From the IMG/VR virus record IMGVR_UViG_3300035180_002210, positions 1 to 64,000 of that record: DNA of 64,000 nucleotides, one strand, 5' to 3'. A program made the translations under genes and the position numbers. This DNA is from a virus. Position 1 is the first letter of the stretch, and the number at the start of each line of letters is the position of its first letter. Positions 30,300 through 41,879 of this stretch are shown here, piece by piece. The notes below the pieces were generated by a model. That model did no database searches, had not been told where the DNA came from, and saw only the letters and a program-made list of their open reading frames with translations.

Positions 30300-33200
30300 A
30301 TGGATAATCTTGATGATAAATTGAAGGCGGACAAAAACTTTAAGCTACAAGGACGTAAAAGCTTTCAGGGCCTTGATATTGCGGTAGAGAACCGGCCCGG
30401 CAGCATACGCAGCGGGCTTGACAATGACGGGGAGGAATGGGAAACCCGTATGTTTTATGAATATGGATATATCCGCGGCACGCTTGGAGTTGACGGCGAG
30501 CAGGTAGATTGCTATGTGGGTAAAAACGCCGACAGCCAAAAGGTTTTTATCATCCATCAGAAGAATCCGGAAACCGGCAAGTATGATGAGGATAAAGTTA
30601 TGCTTGGGTTCACAGATAAAACACACGCCAGGGACGCCTATTTGGCACACTACGACTCGCATAAGTTCCTTGGTGAAATAACTGAAATGACCATCGACGA
30701 ATTAAAAGAGAAATTGAAAACCAGGAAGGGTAAAATGATTAAGAGCGTATCAATTTTCGGTAAAAAAGTATTGCAGGCGTTCGAGGATATTTTTAAGTCA
30801 GTGAAAGTCCGGGATCTATTGACTATGAATATGTTTGACGCCGCGAATCCGGATGATGAGGTGACAGAGGGTAAAACCGTAGTAAAAAACGGAAAGACTT
30901 ATGAATACCGCCGGAGCCAGAAAAACCCGGGGGTACGCAGATTGTTTTCCACCGAGCAGGACGAACCGGCGCAGCCGGATTTATTCCAGACCGCTCCAAA
31001 GATAGCAGGGCCTACACCGAAGCAGGCAGCGGCCTTGGGTGAGCATGAGCCAGTAGACCAGGCAGCCATGAAGGAGGCCACAAAGAGAACTAAATTATTT
31101 GGCCAGCAAGTAAGTTTATTCGATCAGCAGGAAGAGCCGAAAACTGCAAAAAGCCTTGTAAAAATAACTAATAAAATAACCGGTGAATCTGCAAAACCGG
31201 ATGAAAAAATAACTGACAAGATACCGGAAGAGGAACACCCCGAGACAATAGGTGATGATCTGTTCTCCCAGCCAGCACCCAGCCCGAAAAAGAAAGAGGA
31301 TGAAGAAAACCCGACAATGGCGTTTGGAGCGGAGGCTATTGATAAGAACGTCGTGAAGAAACGGCAGGAAATAAATGCCAAAGCGCTTGAACTTCTTAAA
31401 ACAAAGAAACCTGAAGAAATGACAATGGATGATAAAATAATCCTTGCTCAGTATTCAGGCCGCGGCGGATTGGGCGGAAACACTTTTGACGATATCAGTT
31501 TGAACGAATATTACACCAGGACGCAGGAAGCACAGTTTATTTGGGATATGTTAGGGAAGTTTGGCTTCAAAGGCGGACCGGTACTGGAACCGAGTTCCGG
31601 AGTTGGCGTATTTATCCATACCGCGCCAAAGGACACCATAGTTGACGGCGTAGAGCTTGATAAGACGAGCAGCGCTATTGCTTCCATACTTCACGGGCAA
31701 TTCCACAACATAACGAACCAGAGTTTTGAGCAACATATAAAAGGAAGCGACGGCGGAAAATATGCAGCGGTAGTAGGAAACCCGCCATTCGGGCCGCGCG
31801 GAATGACCTCAGTTGACGATCCGGAAAAGATAGACTTGAACACCTGCCAGGAATATTTCCTTGACCGGGGTATTGACGAACTTGAAGAAGGCGGGTTATT
31901 GGGAATGATTGTTCCCACGGGTATCATGGATAACCAGGTGAATGAATGGCGGCTTTCTCTCAATAAAAAGGCAGACTTTTTAGGCGCAATCAGGATGCCT
32001 ACCGGAGTATTTAAGCATGCAAAGGCTCAGGTAACAACGGATATTGTATTTTTCCGTAAAAGGGATGATGCAGTACGGGACTATCTTGAAAACGTTCCTA
32101 AAGAGGATTTGAAGGGCTTATACGACGCTCAAATTCTTGACGCGGAGTTTATTGCCGGTAACTATTTTGAGAAGAACCCGCAGTACGCCCTTGGAACAAA
32201 GAAGCGCGGGCAATGGGAAGGACAGAGCATTTGGACCGGTGACATAAGCCGGGGTGATCTGGATGAAGTTGGAGCATTACTGAAATTTACGGATCGGGAC
32301 GCGGAATATCAGAAGCTTGGAATCCTCATTGATCGACTGCCGGCAAAAGAGCTTCATGTTGGAGATACCAAAACATTCAACGGGCGCACCTACCGATTGA
32401 ACGAAAACCACCGATGGGAAAGGGTTGATGAAGCGGAGCTGGGTAAAGAATCCCTGCCAAAAGAGCTGCAGGAGAAGCTTGGAATAAAAACAAAAGCAGA
32501 ATTTCAGGCCTTGCAGCGGGACGTAGCGAAAAAGCTTGAACTCACCCGCGAGCAGTTAAATCTTCTGGATGATAAGGTTTTGTCATCGGAGCTGGAAGCG
32601 TACAATGACAAAAACGACTTCCGGGCGGAAATGCTGAAGCACGCTACTTTGTTAGGGCTGGCAGTTAAAAAGTTTCAGATTGATTTACGAAGCGGGGCCA
32701 TTGAAGGAAGCGACGCACAAAAAGAAGCAGCTAAGCTTGCAGGCTTGCTCAATCAGTTCCATGATAAATACGGACACCCGATTAATGATTTGAAACTGAA
32801 ACGGTACTTAGGGCGCACAACCGGAAACCCTATTCTTTATTTGGCCGGGTCCTTTAACGAGGACGGCGGGTTAAGCGCAATTTTTGACGATCCACTGGCT
32901 TACTACGCAGTATACAGGACAAACTACGAAGTGGGTGAGCTTGACAGCAAGAGCATACCGAAAATTTTACAATATCTGGTTGATAACGGGCTTGACACTT
33001 CTTTCGAGTCTATACAGTCCATGTACAGCGGCGGCACCATCGAAGAAAATGAGCTTATCCGTGATGAGAATGTTTTTATTGACGAGAACGGCGGGTATAG
33101 CCCAACGCAGGAGGTTTGTGTAGGTACGGTTTATAATAAACTGGATGCCTGGACAAAAATGCGAAAAGACATCAGCGAAAAATTGTCAACTCCGGCAGGG

Positions 33201-36200
33201 GTAAACGAACCCGAGGGCGAAGGTAAAACGCTTAGCGACGATGAAAAGGAAACCTTGCTACTGAAGGATAAAAAGCTTGAAGATCAGATTTTTGAGATGA
33301 AACGCAGAGCCGGATCTACGGAGTTAACGAATCTTCCGGTATCAATGAAGGACGCAGGAGAATTTTTTGATATTAAGCATTTGAACGAATATTTAAGCGG
33401 GAAACTGGGAGCTAATTTTGTTGGCAACATATCCAGGAATAAAGAAGGCTTTTTTGGTATGGAGGACCAAGGGCTACAGAACACCTATTTGATGTATGCC
33501 ACAAAAGGCGCAGAAGGCCAGGACAAATATGAAAAAGATCAACGGAACCGGTCTATGGAGGCGTATTTCGGTAAGGAAAATCTGAATCCGCCGATGTTTC
33601 TCTTCCTGAATATGCTTAACGGCTTATCGGTTCGCGGCGCAAATAGTCTTGAATTCAAAAAACAGTACGAAGATATTGCGAACAGCTTTGTCAAATACCT
33701 TGATTCAATTGATGAGGCACCGGCCATAACCGATATTTATAACCGGGCTTTTAACGACTTCATACAGAAAAAGTATGATGATTCAGTTATCGAAGGCCTG
33801 AATCACTTTGCTTACGATAAAGTTGTTGCCACCGATAAGGACGGCAAAGAATTTACAGTAAGGGATAAAATAGGCTCCCATGTTTGGGAAGTTGTCCGGC
33901 GCATGTATGACCAAGGGAAGGGTATAATTGCTCACGGCGTCGGTTTAGGAAAGACTGTCACTGCAATTGCGCTGATAGCCTTATCGAAGGCAACGGGCCG
34001 ATGCAAGAAGCCGGTAGTGATCATGCCGAAGTCATTGCAGCTGAATTGGGTAAACGAAATTAACAAGTGGACCGAAGGGAGTAAGATACTTCCGGTTGGA
34101 TTGAAGCAGGTAAACGGAGTCTGGAAGGATTGCAACGCGCAGGAAACTATTTTGCAGCTTCAGCAGATTCAGAACGAGGACTGGGACTATATTCTGATCA
34201 CCAGGGATGACTTTAAACGGATAGATTTCAACCCCGAGACGAAAAAGCGAATGATTAAAGAGATAGCGGATAAATACTATCCGGAAGGTGATGAAATGAC
34301 CAAACTCGATAAGCAGAAGCGCGAAGTGGCTATTCAGCAATTGGCAAAGACCATGCAGAACGATACCGCGTTCGAAAACGTGTTTCTGGAAAATCTTGGG
34401 CTGGATATGATGGTGAGGGACGAGGCCCATGATTGCAAGAACTTACTGCAGGCAGTTCAGACGGATATTAAAGGCATAGGCAATGCCGCCGCGGCGATCA
34501 GCATGCACAACTTTTTTGCATCGAAGATCATACGCGGAGCCAATAACGAAAAGGGCGTATTCTCTATGACGGCAACACCGATTTCTAACAGTCCGCTTGA
34601 AGTGTTTAATATGATGCTGCCGGTTATGGAAAAGGAGCTCGAGGCGATCAATATTAAGACAATGGATGATTTTGTTGAGAAATTTGCAGATCACGGAATG
34701 CGGATGACTGCCGACGCCGATGGTAAGGTAGGAGAAAAAGACATGTTCTCCGGCTGGAAAGTGCCTGACGCGCTAAGGAAGATTTTCTACCGGTTCACCG
34801 ACTTTAAAACAAAGGATGATGTTGAAAGTGTACGGTCAAGCATAAAGTTCCCGAAGGAACGGCCTTCCAATTTATACAGTACGTTAAATGCAGGGCAGGA
34901 ACAATTAAGCGATCATTGTTCGGCAAGGCTGAATTGTTTGAAATACCGTGAGCAGGATCCCAATACTAAAAAGTGGAACCTGAAAGACAGCGTAATGACC
35001 AAGGACATTGAGGAAGAAGTTCTAACCGAGCAGGAGAAGCAGGACGCGGTTCACTACTTCTATAATCAGTTCATACCCACGTATGAGAAATTGAACCGGG
35101 GCCGCAGTCCGGAGGATCCGCCGATTGATGACTGTTTCTTCTCAATTCAGAGCGACCTTATTAAGATCAGCAGCGATTTGGACTGGTACGCCGGGAACCG
35201 CAGCTATTATTCCAAGGATATTGATGAATCGTTTGTTGAGAAATACAATGATTTAGATAAGTATAAACAGTTGACCGAGCATGCTGCAGGGCTTTATAAT
35301 TCGGGCAAGAAGCAGCTCATTTTCGCTATAAATACTACGCTTCACCCGATCATACTTGATAATCTGATAAAGGCCGGGATAAAGCCTTCTGAAATTGCTA
35401 TTGTAAACGGAAAGACGGCAAAGAACGCACAGGCCCGCTCCAAGTTCAGTGAAGGGTTCAACAGCGGCAAGTATAAAGTAATTATCGGTAACTACGCCAC
35501 AATGGGCGAAGGTTTGAATTTTAACAAAGAATGCGCTGCCATCACCCACGTACAACCGGCCTGGAACTATGCACAGATCGAGCAGGGAAATGGCCGGGGA
35601 ATTCGGCAGGGGAATGACCTGGACTTTGTTGATACGTATTACATGCTCACCAAGGGCAGCATCGACACCTTCATGACTGATAAGATCATGAAGAAGGGCG
35701 GCATGGTTTCTAAATTCCTCAAAGGAGAGCTGAGCGAGTGGAACGAAGATGTTCAGCTTGACGGTGACGAAATGCTGGCCGCACGGGCGAAGAACCCGGA
35801 ACGGGCAAGGAAAATTCTGGAAAGAAGGAACGCCGCCATTCAGGAGGCTAAGAAGGAGAAAAACCGGGTAATTAATTTCCAAAAGTTTGATCGGTTGTTT
35901 GAAGTAAAAGCTAAGATGAGTAAGTTTGAGGACCAAAACAGCAAACAGTATAAAATGCTGGAACAGGAACAAAATGAGATCATGGAGCGGTTGAACAACG
36001 ATCCGGAATTCAAGCTGAAAGACCACCTTACTTCAGATCAGAAGCCTATTGTTATCAGGAACCATGACGTAGCAATTCCTGTAGGAAGTGTGGTGAAATA
36101 TTCGAACCACCCGGACGAAGCAAATGAATTTGCGGTATTGACCGACTATACCCCGAGCACGGGACGGGTTCTTTTGACCACGTACAGTTCTGATACAAGG

Positions 36201-37043
36201 GAGATTAAGTCTATGCCGGTTGAATCGTTCATCAGCCAGTACGGATGGACCGTAAAGAAAACGGACCTTGACGTAGCGGGAATGTTCAAAACTTTGGTTG
36301 ATAAGGAGAATCTTATTGATATGGGCATGATTAACGCCATGCCGATAGACGCTTTGAACGCGAACCGGAAACAGTTATTGCAGAATTTACGGGATGTGGA
36401 CTACGCACCCCCATTGATGTATAAAAATATGAATGGTGAAATTAAATTTGATGTAGCCGATGATGTATTTCAGACAATAGAGGAGGACGGCGGGAAGGTC
36501 CTATTCCCGCAGGAATATCCGGATTGGGTTAAGGTTGCCAGCCAGATTATTAAGAGTAAACGGGATGACTCGAAAGCCCGGGGATTTTGCCGAGCGATTT
36601 ACGGCGATAATTGGGAAAAGGAACTTCCGAAAGCGGTTAAGAAGTTGACGAATCCGAAAGCGGAAACAAACACCACACCGCAGGATAAGTTTGAAATACC
36701 GGACTGGAAAGAAGCCAAGTTTAATGTTTTAGTCAAGCAACTTGAAAACGAAGGCTATATTTCACCGTATGACGCTCATAGGGCAGTTAAGGAGAAATCG
36801 GACCGCTTGCCATCGGAATATCTCATGAACCGGATATTGCAGGGCGGATTGAGTAAGAAATACATTGCGGATTATGAAAACGCGGAAAACAAGGAAGAAT
36901 TTCTGCAGCGCAATAACGACCGCATGGAGTCTATAATTGCGCTCTTTGACCACGGTGATGACGAACTGAAAAAATGGCACGACAAATTGAAGCTTGACAA
37001 ATGGTACGGAGATAATAAACATTTAAGCGAGAAAACAGCATGA
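30300..37043 (+). CDS. Polyvalent protein 2: pyrophosphatase-like, DNA methyltransferase and SNF2 helicase
   Basis: The 2247-residue DarB-like protein has the following order. A pyrophosphatase-like domain of polyvalent proteins is at about 15-150 (GLDIAVENRPGSIRSGLDNDG, YGYIRGTLGVDGEQVDCYVG). A linker with QPDLF (225-229) and QVSLF (270-274) clamp-like motifs follows. An N6-adenine methyltransferase domain is at about 380-600 (motif I LEPSSGVGVF, motif IV NPPFG near 494). An SNF2-type helicase has Walker A GVGLGKT near 1213, DEAH near 1374, FSMTATPISN and QGNGRGIRQG near 1760. A helical tail ends it. DarB of phage P1 enters with DNA and protects it from type I restriction; a similar role is likely. 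Confidence 0.85.
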   Translation: MDNLDDKLKADKNFKLQGRKSFQGLDIAVENRPGSIRSGLDNDGEEWETRMFYEYGYIRGTLGVDGEQVDCYVGKNADSQKVFIIHQKNPETGKYDEDKVMLGFTDKTHARDAYLAHYDSHKFLGEITEMTIDELKEKLKTRKGKMIKSVSIFGKKVLQAFEDIFKSVKVRDLLTMNMFDAANPDDEVTEGKTVVKNGKTYEYRRSQKNPGVRRLFSTEQDEPAQPDLFQTAPKIAGPTPKQAAALGEHEPVDQAAMKEATKRTKLFGQQVSLFDQQEEPKTAKSLVKITNKITGESAKPDEKITDKIPEEEHPETIGDDLFSQPAPSPKKKEDEENPTMAFGAEAIDKNVVKKRQEINAKALELLKTKKPEEMTMDDKIILAQYSGRGGLGGNTFDDISLNEYYTRTQEAQFIWDMLGKFGFKGGPVLEPSSGVGVFIHTAPKDTIVDGVELDKTSSAIASILHGQFHNITNQSFEQHIKGSDGGKYAAVVGNPPFGPRGMTSVDDPEKIDLNTCQEYFLDRGIDELEEGGLLGMIVPTGIMDNQVNEWRLSLNKKADFLGAIRMPTGVFKHAKAQVTTDIVFFRKRDDAVRDYLENVPKEDLKGLYDAQILDAEFIAGNYFEKNPQYALGTKKRGQWEGQSIWTGDISRGDLDEVGALLKFTDRDAEYQKLGILIDRLPAKELHVGDTKTFNGRTYRLNENHRWERVDEAELGKESLPKELQEKLGIKTKAEFQALQRDVAKKLELTREQLNLLDDKVLSSELEAYNDKNDFRAEMLKHATLLGLAVKKFQIDLRSGAIEGSDAQKEAAKLAGLLNQFHDKYGHPINDLKLKRYLGRTTGNPILYLAGSFNEDGGLSAIFDDPLAYYAVYRTNYEVGELDSKSIPKILQYLVDNGLDTSFESIQSMYSGGTIEENELIRDENVFIDENGGYSPTQEVCVGTVYNKLDAWTKMRKDISEKLSTPAGVNEPEGEGKTLSDDEKETLLLKDKKLEDQIFEMKRRAGSTELTNLPVSMKDAGEFFDIKHLNEYLSGKLGANFVGNISRNKEGFFGMEDQGLQNTYLMYATKGAEGQDKYEKDQRNRSMEAYFGKENLNPPMFLFLNMLNGLSVRGANSLEFKKQYEDIANSFVKYLDSIDEAPAITDIYNRAFNDFIQKKYDDSVIEGLNHFAYDKVVATDKDGKEFTVRDKIGSHVWEVVRRMYDQGKGIIAHGVGLGKTVTAIALIALSKATGRCKKPVVIMPKSLQLNWVNEINKWTEGSKILPVGLKQVNGVWKDCNAQETILQLQQIQNEDWDYILITRDDFKRIDFNPETKKRMIKEIADKYYPEGDEMTKLDKQKREVAIQQLAKTMQNDTAFENVFLENLGLDMMVRDEAHDCKNLLQAVQTDIKGIGNAAAAISMHNFFASKIIRGANNEKGVFSMTATPISNSPLEVFNMMLPVMEKELEAINIKTMDDFVEKFADHGMRMTADADGKVGEKDMFSGWKVPDALRKIFYRFTDFKTKDDVESVRSSIKFPKERPSNLYSTLNAGQEQLSDHCSARLNCLKYREQDPNTKKWNLKDSVMTKDIEEEVLTEQEKQDAVHYFYNQFIPTYEKLNRGRSPEDPPIDDCFFSIQSDLIKISSDLDWYAGNRSYYSKDIDESFVEKYNDLDKYKQLTEHAAGLYNSGKKQLIFAINTTLHPIILDNLIKAGIKPSEIAIVNGKTAKNAQARSKFSEGFNSGKYKVIIGNYATMGEGLNFNKECAAITHVQPAWNYAQIEQGNGRGIRQGNDLDFVDTYYMLTKGSIDTFMTDKIMKKGGMVSKFLKGELSEWNEDVQLDGDEMLAARAKNPERARKILERRNAAIQEAKKEKNRVINFQKFDRLFEVKAKMSKFEDQNSKQYKMLEQEQNEIMERLNNDPEFKLKDHLTSDQKPIVIRNHDVAIPVGSVVKYSNHPDEANEFAVLTDYTPSTGRVLLTTYSSDTREIKSMPVESFISQYGWTVKKTDLDVAGMFKTLVDKENLIDMGMINAMPIDALNANRKQLLQNLRDVDYAPPLMYKNMNGEIKFDVADDVFQTIEEDGGKVLFPQEYPDWVKVASQIIKSKRDDSKARGFCRAIYGDNWEKELPKAVKKLTNPKAETNTTPQDKFEIPDWKEAKFNVLVKQLENEGYISPYDAHRAVKEKSDRLPSEYLMNRILQGGLSKKYIADYENAENKEEFLQRNNDRMESIIALFDHGDDELKKWHDKLKLDKWYGDNKHLSEKTA

Positions 37044-38903: not shown

Positions 38904-40397
38904 ATGCACAACACAAGTAAAGACGAGTTCAGTTTTTTTGCCGACGAAGCCTACCTGGTTAAAAGCGGTGATGCCAAAAGCCACAAGTTTGGCGGCTGCT
39001 TTACTACTGAGGACCGGGACATTGACGGAGAAATCCTCGACGCGGACGGCATGGATATTACTTCGTACTTCATGAACGGCTGGGGTAAGATAAAATATGA
39101 GCACCCGGATTACCTTGATACCTTCATAGGCGCGCCTACCAAAGTCTGGCGGAATGGGAAGAAGACCTACTTCGAAGCAGAATTCTACCATTTCCATGAT
39201 ATTCCGGATGATATGTTGAACACGCAGCAGAAAGCAGCCAAGCAGGCTTATGACTTGCTCAAGAACACCGAAGAGTGGAACCGGCTGCACCCTGAAGCGC
39301 CTAAGCAGAAAATTGGTTACAGTGTTGAGGGTGAGTGGCGGAAAAAGGACAAGGATGAAAAGACCGGCAGGATCAAAAAATCCAGACTGGTAAATGTTGT
39401 ACTTACAACGAAGCCAAGGAACCGCGGTACGGAAGCAGTTTTGAAATCAATGGAAGTAGGGTATGCACACGGCATAACGGACCAGACGGGGTTTGGAGCG
39501 ACACGCCTTTCATCCATTCAAAGAGATAAGAAGCAAATTAAAAAATCAGCCGATACGGACGATGACAGTCTGGTAGATATGACTGAATCTATTAACAATT
39601 CATTCATTAAAATCATTAAGGAGCATATTCCTATGAAAAAGTTCAAAGACAAAAAAGAGTGCCATGAGTATTACAAAAGCTTAGGGCTCGACGACGACGA
39701 AGCCGGAATGCTTGCCGATAAGTGGGAAAAACACGAATCAGGCGAAGGCAAGGAAAAGGAAGAGTTAGAGCGCAAGAAGAAAGAAGAAGCGGAAAAGAAC
39801 GAGAAAGTTGAAAAATCGCTTGGTATTTCCGATATGCGGGCCAGCCTGGAAGCAATCCAGTCCCTGGTTAAAGCGCGTCCTTCCTTCACGGTAGAAGAGT
39901 TTGAAGGGAAACTTTCAAAATCGGTTAAAGTGAACGCCAAAGGCGAAGTTGAGGACATTACCCCCTATTTCAAAGAGAAAGAGAAAATGGATATTGCCAT
40001 CCTCGAAACTCTGGTTGGGCTGAACGACAAACTTGATCTGTTCGCAAAATCAATGGGACTTTTAGTTGCGGGTACGGTTCAAATGGCTAAATCGGTTGGG
40101 ACAACCATTCAGTTTAGCGAATTGAACGCGAAAGCCGCAGTAAAAATGCTGAAATCAAGCTCGATGAGCCTTGGTCTATCAACAGACAATCTCGACGATC
40201 ACACCATTGACGATAACAACAGAATGGAAAAATCGTTAGGCAGCGACCTTAAAAAAGGAGAAGTGATTGAAATACTCGACAAGTTACGCCAGGCAGGCAA
40301 AGTTGACCGGTTAACTGTTTCCCGCGCGGAAGTTGGCGAGATTGACGATAGGACCATGCAGATGGTGAAATCGAACCGGAATCTGTTACACAAATAA
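38904..40397 (+). CDS. Prohead protease fused to a scaffold (XkdF-like)
   Basis: The 497-residue protein has an N-terminal XkdF-type protease domain (about 1-165; FTTEDRDIDGEILDADGMD, KYEHPDYLDTFIGAPTKV, KIGYSVEGEW). A helical, Lys/Glu-rich scaffold occupies the rest. Residues 185-206 contain GITDQTGFGATRL, which matches the N-terminus of the major capsid protein. Lys-Ser pairs, usually followed by a hydrophobic residue, occur about a dozen times, most of them in the scaffold, and may mark processing sites. The fusion would assemble inside the prohead, cleave itself and free space for DNA. Confidence 0.85.
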   Translation: MHNTSKDEFSFFADEAYLVKSGDAKSHKFGGCFTTEDRDIDGEILDADGMDITSYFMNGWGKIKYEHPDYLDTFIGAPTKVWRNGKKTYFEAEFYHFHDIPDDMLNTQQKAAKQAYDLLKNTEEWNRLHPEAPKQKIGYSVEGEWRKKDKDEKTGRIKKSRLVNVVLTTKPRNRGTEAVLKSMEVGYAHGITDQTGFGATRLSSIQRDKKQIKKSADTDDDSLVDMTESINNSFIKIIKEHIPMKKFKDKKECHEYYKSLGLDDDEAGMLADKWEKHESGEGKEKEELERKKKEEAEKNEKVEKSLGISDMRASLEAIQSLVKARPSFTVEEFEGKLSKSVKVNAKGEVEDITPYFKEKEKMDIAILETLVGLNDKLDLFAKSMGLLVAGTVQMAKSVGTTIQFSELNAKAAVKMLKSSSMSLGLSTDNLDDHTIDDNNRMEKSLGSDLKKGEVIEILDKLRQAGKVDRLTVSRAEVGEIDDRTMQMVKSNRNLLHK

Positions 40398-40466: not shown

Positions 40467-41879
40467 ATGGATCAGGATATCCTTTCCTTCGGGCCCAGCA
40501 GCAATCCGGAAATTGCCGCTTTACAGAAAGCCCTGACGGTCGGTTACGACCACGCAATAACCGATCAGACCGGTTTTGGAGCTACCAGGCTCCAATCCAT
40601 CCAAAATACCCTTGTATGGGCGATTGAGGATGAAACCCAGTCGAGATTCTGGATCTCGCTGCGGAAAACAAAAGCGAAATCCTTAATTGAGGAATACGCC
40701 AAATTGAATTACATCGGCGATGCTTCGTTCTACGCTGAGGGTGGAATACCCGAAGAGTACAATGAAGATCTGTCAAGAGACTTCGAGCCCGTCAAATTTG
40801 TTGGCGCGGTTGGAACAGTCCCTTTGACTATCGACGTTGTTGATTCAATCACCGATAACGAATTATTGGTGATGAAAGCAAAAGCCACGGCTATTGTAAG
40901 AACCTGCAATCTGAAAACCATCTTCGGCAATTCAAACAACATTCCTTTGGAATGGAACGGGCTGGTAGAGCAGTTTTACCGCAAGGTAAAGAACCCGACG
41001 CAGAACGTTATTGACTGCCGCGGACAGGTACTTGACATCAACAACATGGCCGAAGCTGCTAAGATAATCGCCTATAACTACGGCGACAGAAACAATTTGA
41101 AATTTTGGATGAGCAACGGCGCGTTTACGAACTACGCCAAAGAGCTGATCAAGAACAAAACCTATTTTGTAAACGGGCGTCAGATCAATGAAATTGTTGC
41201 CGTACCTAAAACCATTGAAATTGGTGATAACGGTAAGGGAACGATTGAAACCGATCTCCACTTCCAGTTCAGAGGCCAGACGAACATTAACGACTTATGG
41301 CCGCGCCTGAACTCAAACAAGAGTGACTTTGCAGCCACAACAGCAAAATGCCCGGCAACGCTTTCCGGCGGTACCGCAACGGCTACCGTTGTTGCTGATC
41401 CACACAGCAAGCTTGACGGCGGCGTATATGACTATTGCTTTATTCCGGTTAACCAGTATGGCGCCGGCAAAGGCTTTGAAGTCCTGAATATCTCTGTTTC
41501 CACAGGACATAACGTAACCTTCGCGCTTAGCGACAACGGATCGGCACCCGGTTATGAAGCGACCTGCTTTGAGGTTTATAGAAAAAACACTGCACAGACA
41601 AACCTTATTGACTACCGCTACATGGCAACATTCAAAGCCAGTGCACCCAATAAAGTTGATGACGGTTCAGCCATCCCGGGAACTGAAATTGCAATTTTAG
41701 CAGACTGGAACCCCGATCAGGTGTTTGACTTCCGCCAATTGCTCCCCATGGTCCGTATGGACCTGGCACGGGTGAAGGATTCAAAACAGTGGTTACAGAA
41801 ATTATACGGAACACCTTTCCTCAAAAACGCAAACAAGGTTGTTCTGTTCACGAACGTCGGCAGCACGCCTTTATCATAA
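40467..41879 (+). CDS. Major capsid protein
   Basis: The 470-residue protein lies directly after the protease/scaffold. Its N-terminus (VGYDHAITDQTGFGATRL, residues 25-42) is followed by SLIEEYAKLNYIGDASFYAEGG and PVKFVGAVGTVPLTIDVVDS. This pattern is like the capsid proteins of SPO1-type and other large contractile-tailed phages (HK97 fold). Residues about 290-395 form a Gly/Ala/Thr-rich insertion that may be an Ig-like surface domain. Cleavage near Lys21-Ala22, before VGYDHAITDQTG, would fit the protease's own copy of the motif. Confidence 0.85.
   Translation: MDQDILSFGPSSNPEIAALQKALTVGYDHAITDQTGFGATRLQSIQNTLVWAIEDETQSRFWISLRKTKAKSLIEEYAKLNYIGDASFYAEGGIPEEYNEDLSRDFEPVKFVGAVGTVPLTIDVVDSITDNELLVMKAKATAIVRTCNLKTIFGNSNNIPLEWNGLVEQFYRKVKNPTQNVIDCRGQVLDINNMAEAAKIIAYNYGDRNNLKFWMSNGAFTNYAKELIKNKTYFVNGRQINEIVAVPKTIEIGDNGKGTIETDLHFQFRGQTNINDLWPRLNSNKSDFAATTAKCPATLSGGTATATVVADPHSKLDGGVYDYCFIPVNQYGAGKGFEVLNISVSTGHNVTFALSDNGSAPGYEATCFEVYRKNTAQTNLIDYRYMATFKASAPNKVDDGSAIPGTEIAILADWNPDQVFDFRQLLPMVRMDLARVKDSKQWLQKLYGTPFLKNANKVVLFTNVGSTPLS

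What the first reader, a model, noticed from the sequence alone, without database searches (positions are those of the whole stretch)
39456..39521. Protease/scaffold and capsid protein share a 22-residue motif
Residues 185-206 of the protease/scaffold and 25-46 of the capsid protein agree at 19 of 22 positions (core ITDQTGFGATRL). The DNA differs by many synonymous changes, so selection on the peptide keeps them alike. In the capsid the motif starts next to QKALT, and in the protease next to LKSME. It may mark the maturation cleavage site or a shared assembly interface.
Basis: partly seen in the sequence, partly recalled or inferred. Interest (0 to 1): 0.65.

Follow-up and report, generated by a model that had tools for sequence, protein, structure and literature searches.

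The report
Phage protease copies capsid protein arm
In this phage and its SPO1-like relatives, the enzyme that trims the head carries, just behind its own predicted cut site, a copy of the segment that begins the trimmed shell protein, and in each phage the two copies resemble each other, which suggests both are used in the same step of building the head.

Summary
In detail: protease residues 185-206 and capsid (MCP) residues 25-46 match at 19 of 22 positions (shuffles reach 10). The codons are as different as independent draws, so selection on the peptide, not DNA copying, keeps them alike.

The pairing is a family trait. The aligned pair is anchored by a K-[S/A/T/G] in 80 of 87 dereplicated loci encoding both genes. 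Identity is at background before that lysine and high from it to about +31. This boundary coincides with a maturation cut: Listeria phage A511's annotated mature MCP and a phi812-type PDB chain both begin just after the equivalent lysine. HK97 cuts K103/S104.

Scaffolds in these phages carry 3-fold too many K-S dipeptides in the context E-x-[VIL]-x-K|S-[FLV]. Mature MCP is depleted of them. Predicted cuts here are MCP K21|A22 and protease K181|S182.

The roughly 27 residues downstream are not part of the generic cut site. Protease and MCP copies track each other within a phage beyond gene relatedness. My best reading is that the protease carries a mimic of the capsid N-arm, which docks it where that arm goes, and auto-cleavage frees it. 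The docking is inferred. Four loci lack the protease copy.

The parts
38904..40397 (+). protease-scaffold fusion gene, 497 aa (P0001)
   Evidence: PHROG 1028 head maturation protease E=1.5e-17
38904..39443 (+). catalytic protease domain, residues 1-180; invariant H67 (39102-39104) and S140 (39321-39323) as candidate catalytic pair
   Evidence: 64 sequences; AlphaFold core pLDDT above 90; best solved fold T4 gp21 E=3.2e-5
39444..39449 (+). predicted auto-cleavage site K181|S182 (context E-A-V-L-K|S-M)
   Evidence: K181 invariant and S182 nearly invariant in 64 proteases; matches scaffold consensus ExPhixK|SPhi
39456..39521 (+). protease copy of the shared motif, residues 185-206
   Evidence: low-confidence (disordered) in the AlphaFold model
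39618..39635 (+). AAGGAG Shine-Dalgarno-like site (39618-39623) and in-frame internal ATG (39633-39635, residue M244): probable separate start for a scaffold-only product
   Evidence: best of 17 in-frame ATGs; homologous ATG with an SD-like site in 8 fused relatives; not significant by synonymous resampling alone
39633..40397 (+). scaffold part; candidate K|S cut sites at residues 258, 304, 339, 382, 396, 417, 443, 489
40467..41879 (+). major capsid protein gene, 470 aa (P0002)
   Evidence: PHROG 752 E=6.8e-56; SPO1 Gp6.1 (9vel_C) E=1.2e-24
40467..40529 (+). predicted MCP propeptide, residues 1-21
   Evidence: inferred from A511 and 9row_B versus 5lii_P
40527..40532 (+). predicted maturation cleavage site K21|A22
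   Evidence: K21 invariant in 13 MCPs
40539..40604 (+). MCP copy of the shared motif, residues 25-46, predicted start of the mature N-arm

Best explanation
Two signals are superimposed. (1) A short maturation-protease cut site, E-x-[VIL]-x-K|[S/A]-[hydrophobic], sits at the same point in the protease (K181|S182) and the capsid protein (K21|A22), and is scattered through the scaffold, so one enzyme trims the shell protein, shreds the scaffold and cuts itself off from its C-terminal tail. (2) Directly downstream, and only in protease and capsid protein, lies a segment of about 27 residues that in the capsid protein is the N-arm of the mature subunit. The protease carries a copy of this N-arm. 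It is proposed to dock in the procapsid at the site used by the capsid N-arm (inner face of the lattice or its scaffold contact), which seats the protease beside its substrate; cleavage at K181|S182 then releases the catalytic domain. Shown: the shared segment, its boundary at the lysine, conservation in relatives, within-genome matching, and K-S enrichment in scaffold and protease. Inferred: the exact cuts in this phage, the docking partner and the release step.
For: Pair found at the same place in most of 87 loci, 80 anchored on K[SATG]. Identity is at background up to -1 relative to the lysine and high to about +31. A511 mature Cps annotated from S24, after K23; [quoted passage not shown] HK97 cut K103/S104 lies in the flexible N-arm region (PMC10275583). 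K-S 3.0x in scaffold ORFs (675 versus 222), 3.2x in protease domains, 2.8x in fused scaffolds, 0.64x in MCP after residue 60, 1.03x in other ORFs; SK shows no such enrichment. Scaffold sites share P5 E, P3 V/I/L, P2' F/L/V but not the downstream motif. Own-genome identity 0.58 versus 0.395 across genomes; partial Mantel r=0.50, 0 of 2000 permutations. L077 has the same 4-residue longer spacer in both copies. No DNA homogenisation: 776 codon differences, 753 expected. C-terminal autocleavage of a prohead protease has precedent (SPN3US, PMC5694885).
Against: No direct N-terminal data for this phage. No structure shows where the protease copy binds. The copy is absent from the protease of four loci (DAC19, MA9V-3, L021, L095), so it is not always needed. 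In the closest relatives (MCP body identity above 65%) own and cross similarity hardly differ, so coupling shows only over longer divergence. In the fused window clade the scaffold could recruit the protease without the motif. In Mecenats66 and Bacchae the nearest K|S lies about 12 and 3 residues upstream of the protease motif.
Confidence: 0.5

Rival explanations
1. Extended substrate recognition: the roughly 27 residues after the lysine bind an exosite of the protease catalytic domain. The protease copy is its own cis substrate or pseudosubstrate, holding the enzyme inactive until assembly; the MCP copy is the trans substrate. Both bind one groove and so match each other.
For: Explains the sharp start at the scissile bond and the within-genome matching. 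C-terminal autocleavage of prohead proteases is known.
Against: Many scaffold K|S sites lack the downstream motif. AlphaFold leaves the segment undocked, pLDDT about 41-57. The MCP copy is more conserved than the protease copy at equal relatedness.
Confidence: 0.25
2. Plain cleavage sites only: the resemblance reflects two K|S sites of one protease plus shared flexibility requirements, with no further joint function.
For: K|S is the common element, and scaffold sites share the flanking preference.
Against: Identity extends about 30 residues beyond the cut with specific G, P, Q, GGA, R and E positions, unlike scaffold sites.
Confidence: 0.18
3. DNA-level duplication or gene conversion between neighbouring genes keeps the copies alike, without functional coupling.
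For: The genes are neighbours, with protease upstream of MCP in all 164 loci holding both.
Against: Identical residues use codons as different as independent draws: 12 versus 12.0 in the window, 776 versus 753 over 80 genomes.
Confidence: 0.04

Closest known systems
Head module of SPO1-like phages (Herelleviridae: SPO1, A511, Twort/phi812 groups)
   Same: Homologous protease (PHROG 1028) and MCP (PHROG 752, SPO1 Gp6.1); same gene order; same paired motif and K-S-rich scaffold.
   Different: In the window and its closest relatives the scaffold is fused to the protease, with a probable internal start, and the motif core reads GFGATR instead of GGALR.
HK97 prohead protease and capsid maturation
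   Same: Cut between K and S at the start of the mature MCP, in a flexible N-arm region (PMC10275583).
   Different: HK97's scaffold is a 102-residue domain of its MCP, whereas here a separate or protease-fused scaffold is used. A capsid-arm copy in the HK97 protease was not examined here.
T4 gp21 / phiKZ / SPN3US prohead proteases
   Same: Closest solved fold is gp21; C-terminal autocleavage is reported for SPN3US and phiKZ proteases (PMC5694885).
   Different: They cut after glutamate (AxE-type motif), not K|S.
Nested protease-scaffold genes (lambda C/Nu3; herpesvirus UL26/UL26.5), from general knowledge
   Same: One frame appears to encode protease-scaffold and, from an internal start, scaffold alone.
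   Different: Relatedness and expression of the short product not tested; the link is by analogy.

Membership tests
SPO1-like (Herelleviridae-type) head maturation protease, PHROG 1028 | sequence-profile match over the protease domain | tested here: met
   E=1.5e-17, residues 24-218; no Pfam match above cut-off
SPO1-like (Herelleviridae-type) head maturation protease, PHROG 1028 | conserved His and Ser as catalytic pair, prohead-protease fold | tested here: met
   H67 and S140 invariant in 64 sequences; fold matches T4 gp21; catalysis itself not tested
SPO1-type HK97-fold major capsid protein, PHROG 752 | full-length homology to SPO1 Gp6.1 | tested here: met
   9vel_C E=1.2e-24 over residues 6-465
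K|S-specific maturation (HK97-like specificity) | mature MCP begins after a lysine at a K|S or K|A bond | tested here: inconclusive
   Relatives begin there; this phage predicted only
K|S-specific maturation (HK97-like specificity) | K-S sites enriched in scaffold and protease, not in mature capsid | tested here: met
   in the window the protease-scaffold is the most K-S-enriched of 66 ORFs
Herelleviridae as a taxon | whole-genome relatedness and gene content | not tested
   Only the head module was compared; the record is 72 kb, whereas the Herelleviridae records fetched are about 127-163 kb
Nested protease/scaffold gene | scaffold-only protein made from an internal start | tested here: inconclusive
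   SD and ATG at a homologous place in 9 fused genes, but synonymous resampling not significant; needs proteomics

The most novel reading that the evidence does not exclude
Across SPO1-like phages the maturation protease carries a mimic of the mature capsid N-arm behind its own cut site. It uses the mimic to occupy an N-arm site in the procapsid lattice and is released by self-cleavage, so that the enzyme is seated among, and timed with, its substrates.
Probability: 0.4. Interest if true: 0.7.

Novelty: new variant of a known kind. Interest (0 to 1): 0.55.

Why it matters
How tailed-phage proheads take in a small number of proteases and time their activity is, as far as I know, poorly understood. 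A capsid-arm copy in the protease, matched within each phage and placed behind an autocleavage site, gives a concrete and mutable candidate for the targeting signal in a large group that includes therapeutic and model phages. The derived cut rule ExPhixK|SPhi also predicts processing sites in every scaffold and protease of the group.

Tried and rejected
Single-protein scan of viral contigs with the MCP found nothing confirmed, and the diverse alignments A1 and A2 were too variable to scan with, so narrower alignments were used. A single-sequence AlphaFold model of the protease was useless (pLDDT 41). Gene conversion was rejected on codon evidence. 'The motif is needed for every cut' was rejected because scaffold sites lack it. 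Matching motif length in all pairs was rejected: in L066, L067, L072 and L074 the protease copy is shorter than the capsid copy. Searching for a replacement copy of the MCP arm elsewhere in the fetched stretches of the four exceptional phages found none convincing. Ten literature searches found no paper describing the paired motif; the library lacks most subscription journals. The position-0 and +1 values are fixed by the anchoring rule and are not used as evidence.

Full report
OBSERVATION. The protease-scaffold gene (38904-40397, 497 aa) and the next gene, the major capsid protein (40467-41879, 470 aa), contain VGYAHGITDQTGFGATRLSSIQ (residues 185-206) and VGYDHAITDQTGFGATRLQSIQ (residues 25-46), identical at 19 of 22 positions. 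Shuffled proteins reach at most 10 of 22. Of the 19 identical residues 12 use different codons, exactly what independent codon draws give (12.0 +/- 2.0), and flanking DNA is not alike. The peptide, not the DNA, is conserved.

IDENTITY. The first protein matches PHROG 1028 (head maturation protease) and the second PHROG 752 (major head protein). The MCP is related to SPO1 Gp6.1 (9vel, E=1.2e-24) and to phi812-type MCPs. With 64 relatives the protease core models confidently, H67 and S140 are invariant, and the closest solved fold is T4 gp21.

RELATIVES. I gathered 164 loci holding both genes, protease always upstream, and dereplicated them to 87. An unsupervised local alignment of the first 80 MCP residues against the protease finds the shared segment at the same place, just behind the catalytic domain, in nearly all; 80 can be anchored on an aligned K-[S/A/T/G]. 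The exceptions are Bacteroides phage DAC19, Chryseobacterium phage MA9V-3, a gut contig (L021) and L095, whose proteases lack a copy; L105 is truncated and uninformative. MA9V-3 (L012) is formally among the 80 anchored loci through a chance K-[S/A] match, although its alignment score is not above shuffles.

BOUNDARY. Protease-MCP identity by position is at background (0.01-0.15, with 0.29 at -4, where both have E) up to the residue before the lysine, then high to about +31 (for example G+5 0.94, P+10 0.78, A/G+16 0.75, R+20 0.81, E+22 0.84), and back to background after about +34. The lysine and +1 are fixed by the anchoring rule. The edge coincides with a known kind of cut: A511's annotated mature Cps begins at S24 after K23; the deposited mature-like chain 9row_B (439 aa) lacks exactly the first 24 residues of 5lii_P (463 aa); HK97 is cut at K103/S104 in a flexible region (PMC10275583). 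By alignment the sites in the window are MCP K21|A22 and protease K181|S182; both lysines are invariant in the alignments.

CUT RULE. K-S dipeptides are 3.0-fold over expectation in 73 scaffold ORFs (675 versus 222), 3.2-fold in protease domains, 2.8-fold in fused scaffolds, 0.64-fold in MCP after residue 60 and 1.03-fold in 324 other ORFs; the reverse dipeptide shows no such enrichment. In the window the protease-scaffold has 13 K-S against 4.6 expected, the strongest of 66 ORFs. Aligned scaffold sites give E(P5)-x-[VIL](P3)-x-K|S-[FLV](P2') with a median of 9 sites per scaffold and no G at +5 or GGA-R. The MCP and protease sites fit this rule at -4, -2, +1 and +2. The extended motif is therefore an additional signal restricted to protease and MCP.

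COUPLING. Over 80 genomes the protease motif is 58% identical to its own MCP motif and 39.5% to those of other genomes. The excess is 0.25 among distant genomes, 0.10 at 50-65% MCP identity and about 0 among the closest. A partial Mantel test controlling for protease and MCP bodies gives r=0.50, 0 of 2000 permutations. Examples: A9 has HGGTDQ in both, the window ITDQTGFGATR in both, L077 the same 4-residue longer spacer in both. Over 80 genomes, 776 of 1292 identical residues use different codons, with 753 expected, so gene conversion is not the cause.

MECHANISM. Best supported: one K|S protease trims MCP, scaffold and itself. The extra segment is the mature capsid N-arm and a copy of it in the protease tail, both fitting one partner in the procapsid. 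D3 and HK97 give the setting: the N-arm is disordered in the procapsid and, after scaffold removal, new density attributed to it appears at a site previously held by scaffold (PMC12749128). SPN3US and phiKZ proteases autocleave at their C-termini (PMC5694885). The AlphaFold model leaves the protease copy unstructured (pLDDT 41-57), which fits an exposed cut site and gives no support to cis docking on the catalytic domain, but disorder in a model is weak evidence. An exosite or pseudosubstrate role remains the main rival.

GENE ARCHITECTURE. In the window and eight relatives the scaffold is fused behind the motif. An in-frame ATG (M244, 39633) preceded by AAGGAG at 9 nt is the best SD site among 17 in-frame ATGs. 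Four genes (window, L009, L030, L031) have a 6-base SD and five a 4-base one at the homologous place. Synonymous resampling does not make any single site significant (0.11-1.0), so a nested scaffold-only product is likely but unproven.

NOVELTY. K|S maturation and protease autocleavage are known kinds of event. I found no description of the paired N-arm motif in the open-access library, which lacks most subscription papers, so novelty is provisional.

Noticed in passing
window 39618-39635: AAGGAG followed 9 nt later by an in-frame ATG inside the protease-scaffold gene, at a place conserved in eight fused relatives: probable internal start for a scaffold-only product.
   Followed up: partly
window 39639-39716 (residues 246-271): A small helical domain with a nearly invariant glycine (G261; LxKGxSxxxA-like in relatives) follows the motif; it ends the unfused proteases and begins the fused scaffold part.
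   Followed up: no
L010 2925-3773, L012 2767-4365, L021 2995-3735, L095 2285-3931: Proteases of DAC19, MA9V-3, a gut contig and L095 lack the capsid-arm copy, although K-S remains above expectation in them.
   Followed up: partly
window 41355-41693 (MCP residues 297-409): This part of the capsid protein matches PHROG 19622 (labelled esterase/lipase, E=4.8e-8); possibly a domain inserted in the capsid protein and shared with an unrelated annotation.
   Followed up: no
window 30300-37043: A single ORF of 2247 aa, helicase/methylase-like by eye, lies upstream of the head genes.
   Followed up: no
L089 1266-2903, L092 1314-2930: Here the motif lies near residue 455 of a protease ORF of about 540 aa, so extra sequence sits between the N-terminus and the motif.
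   Followed up: no
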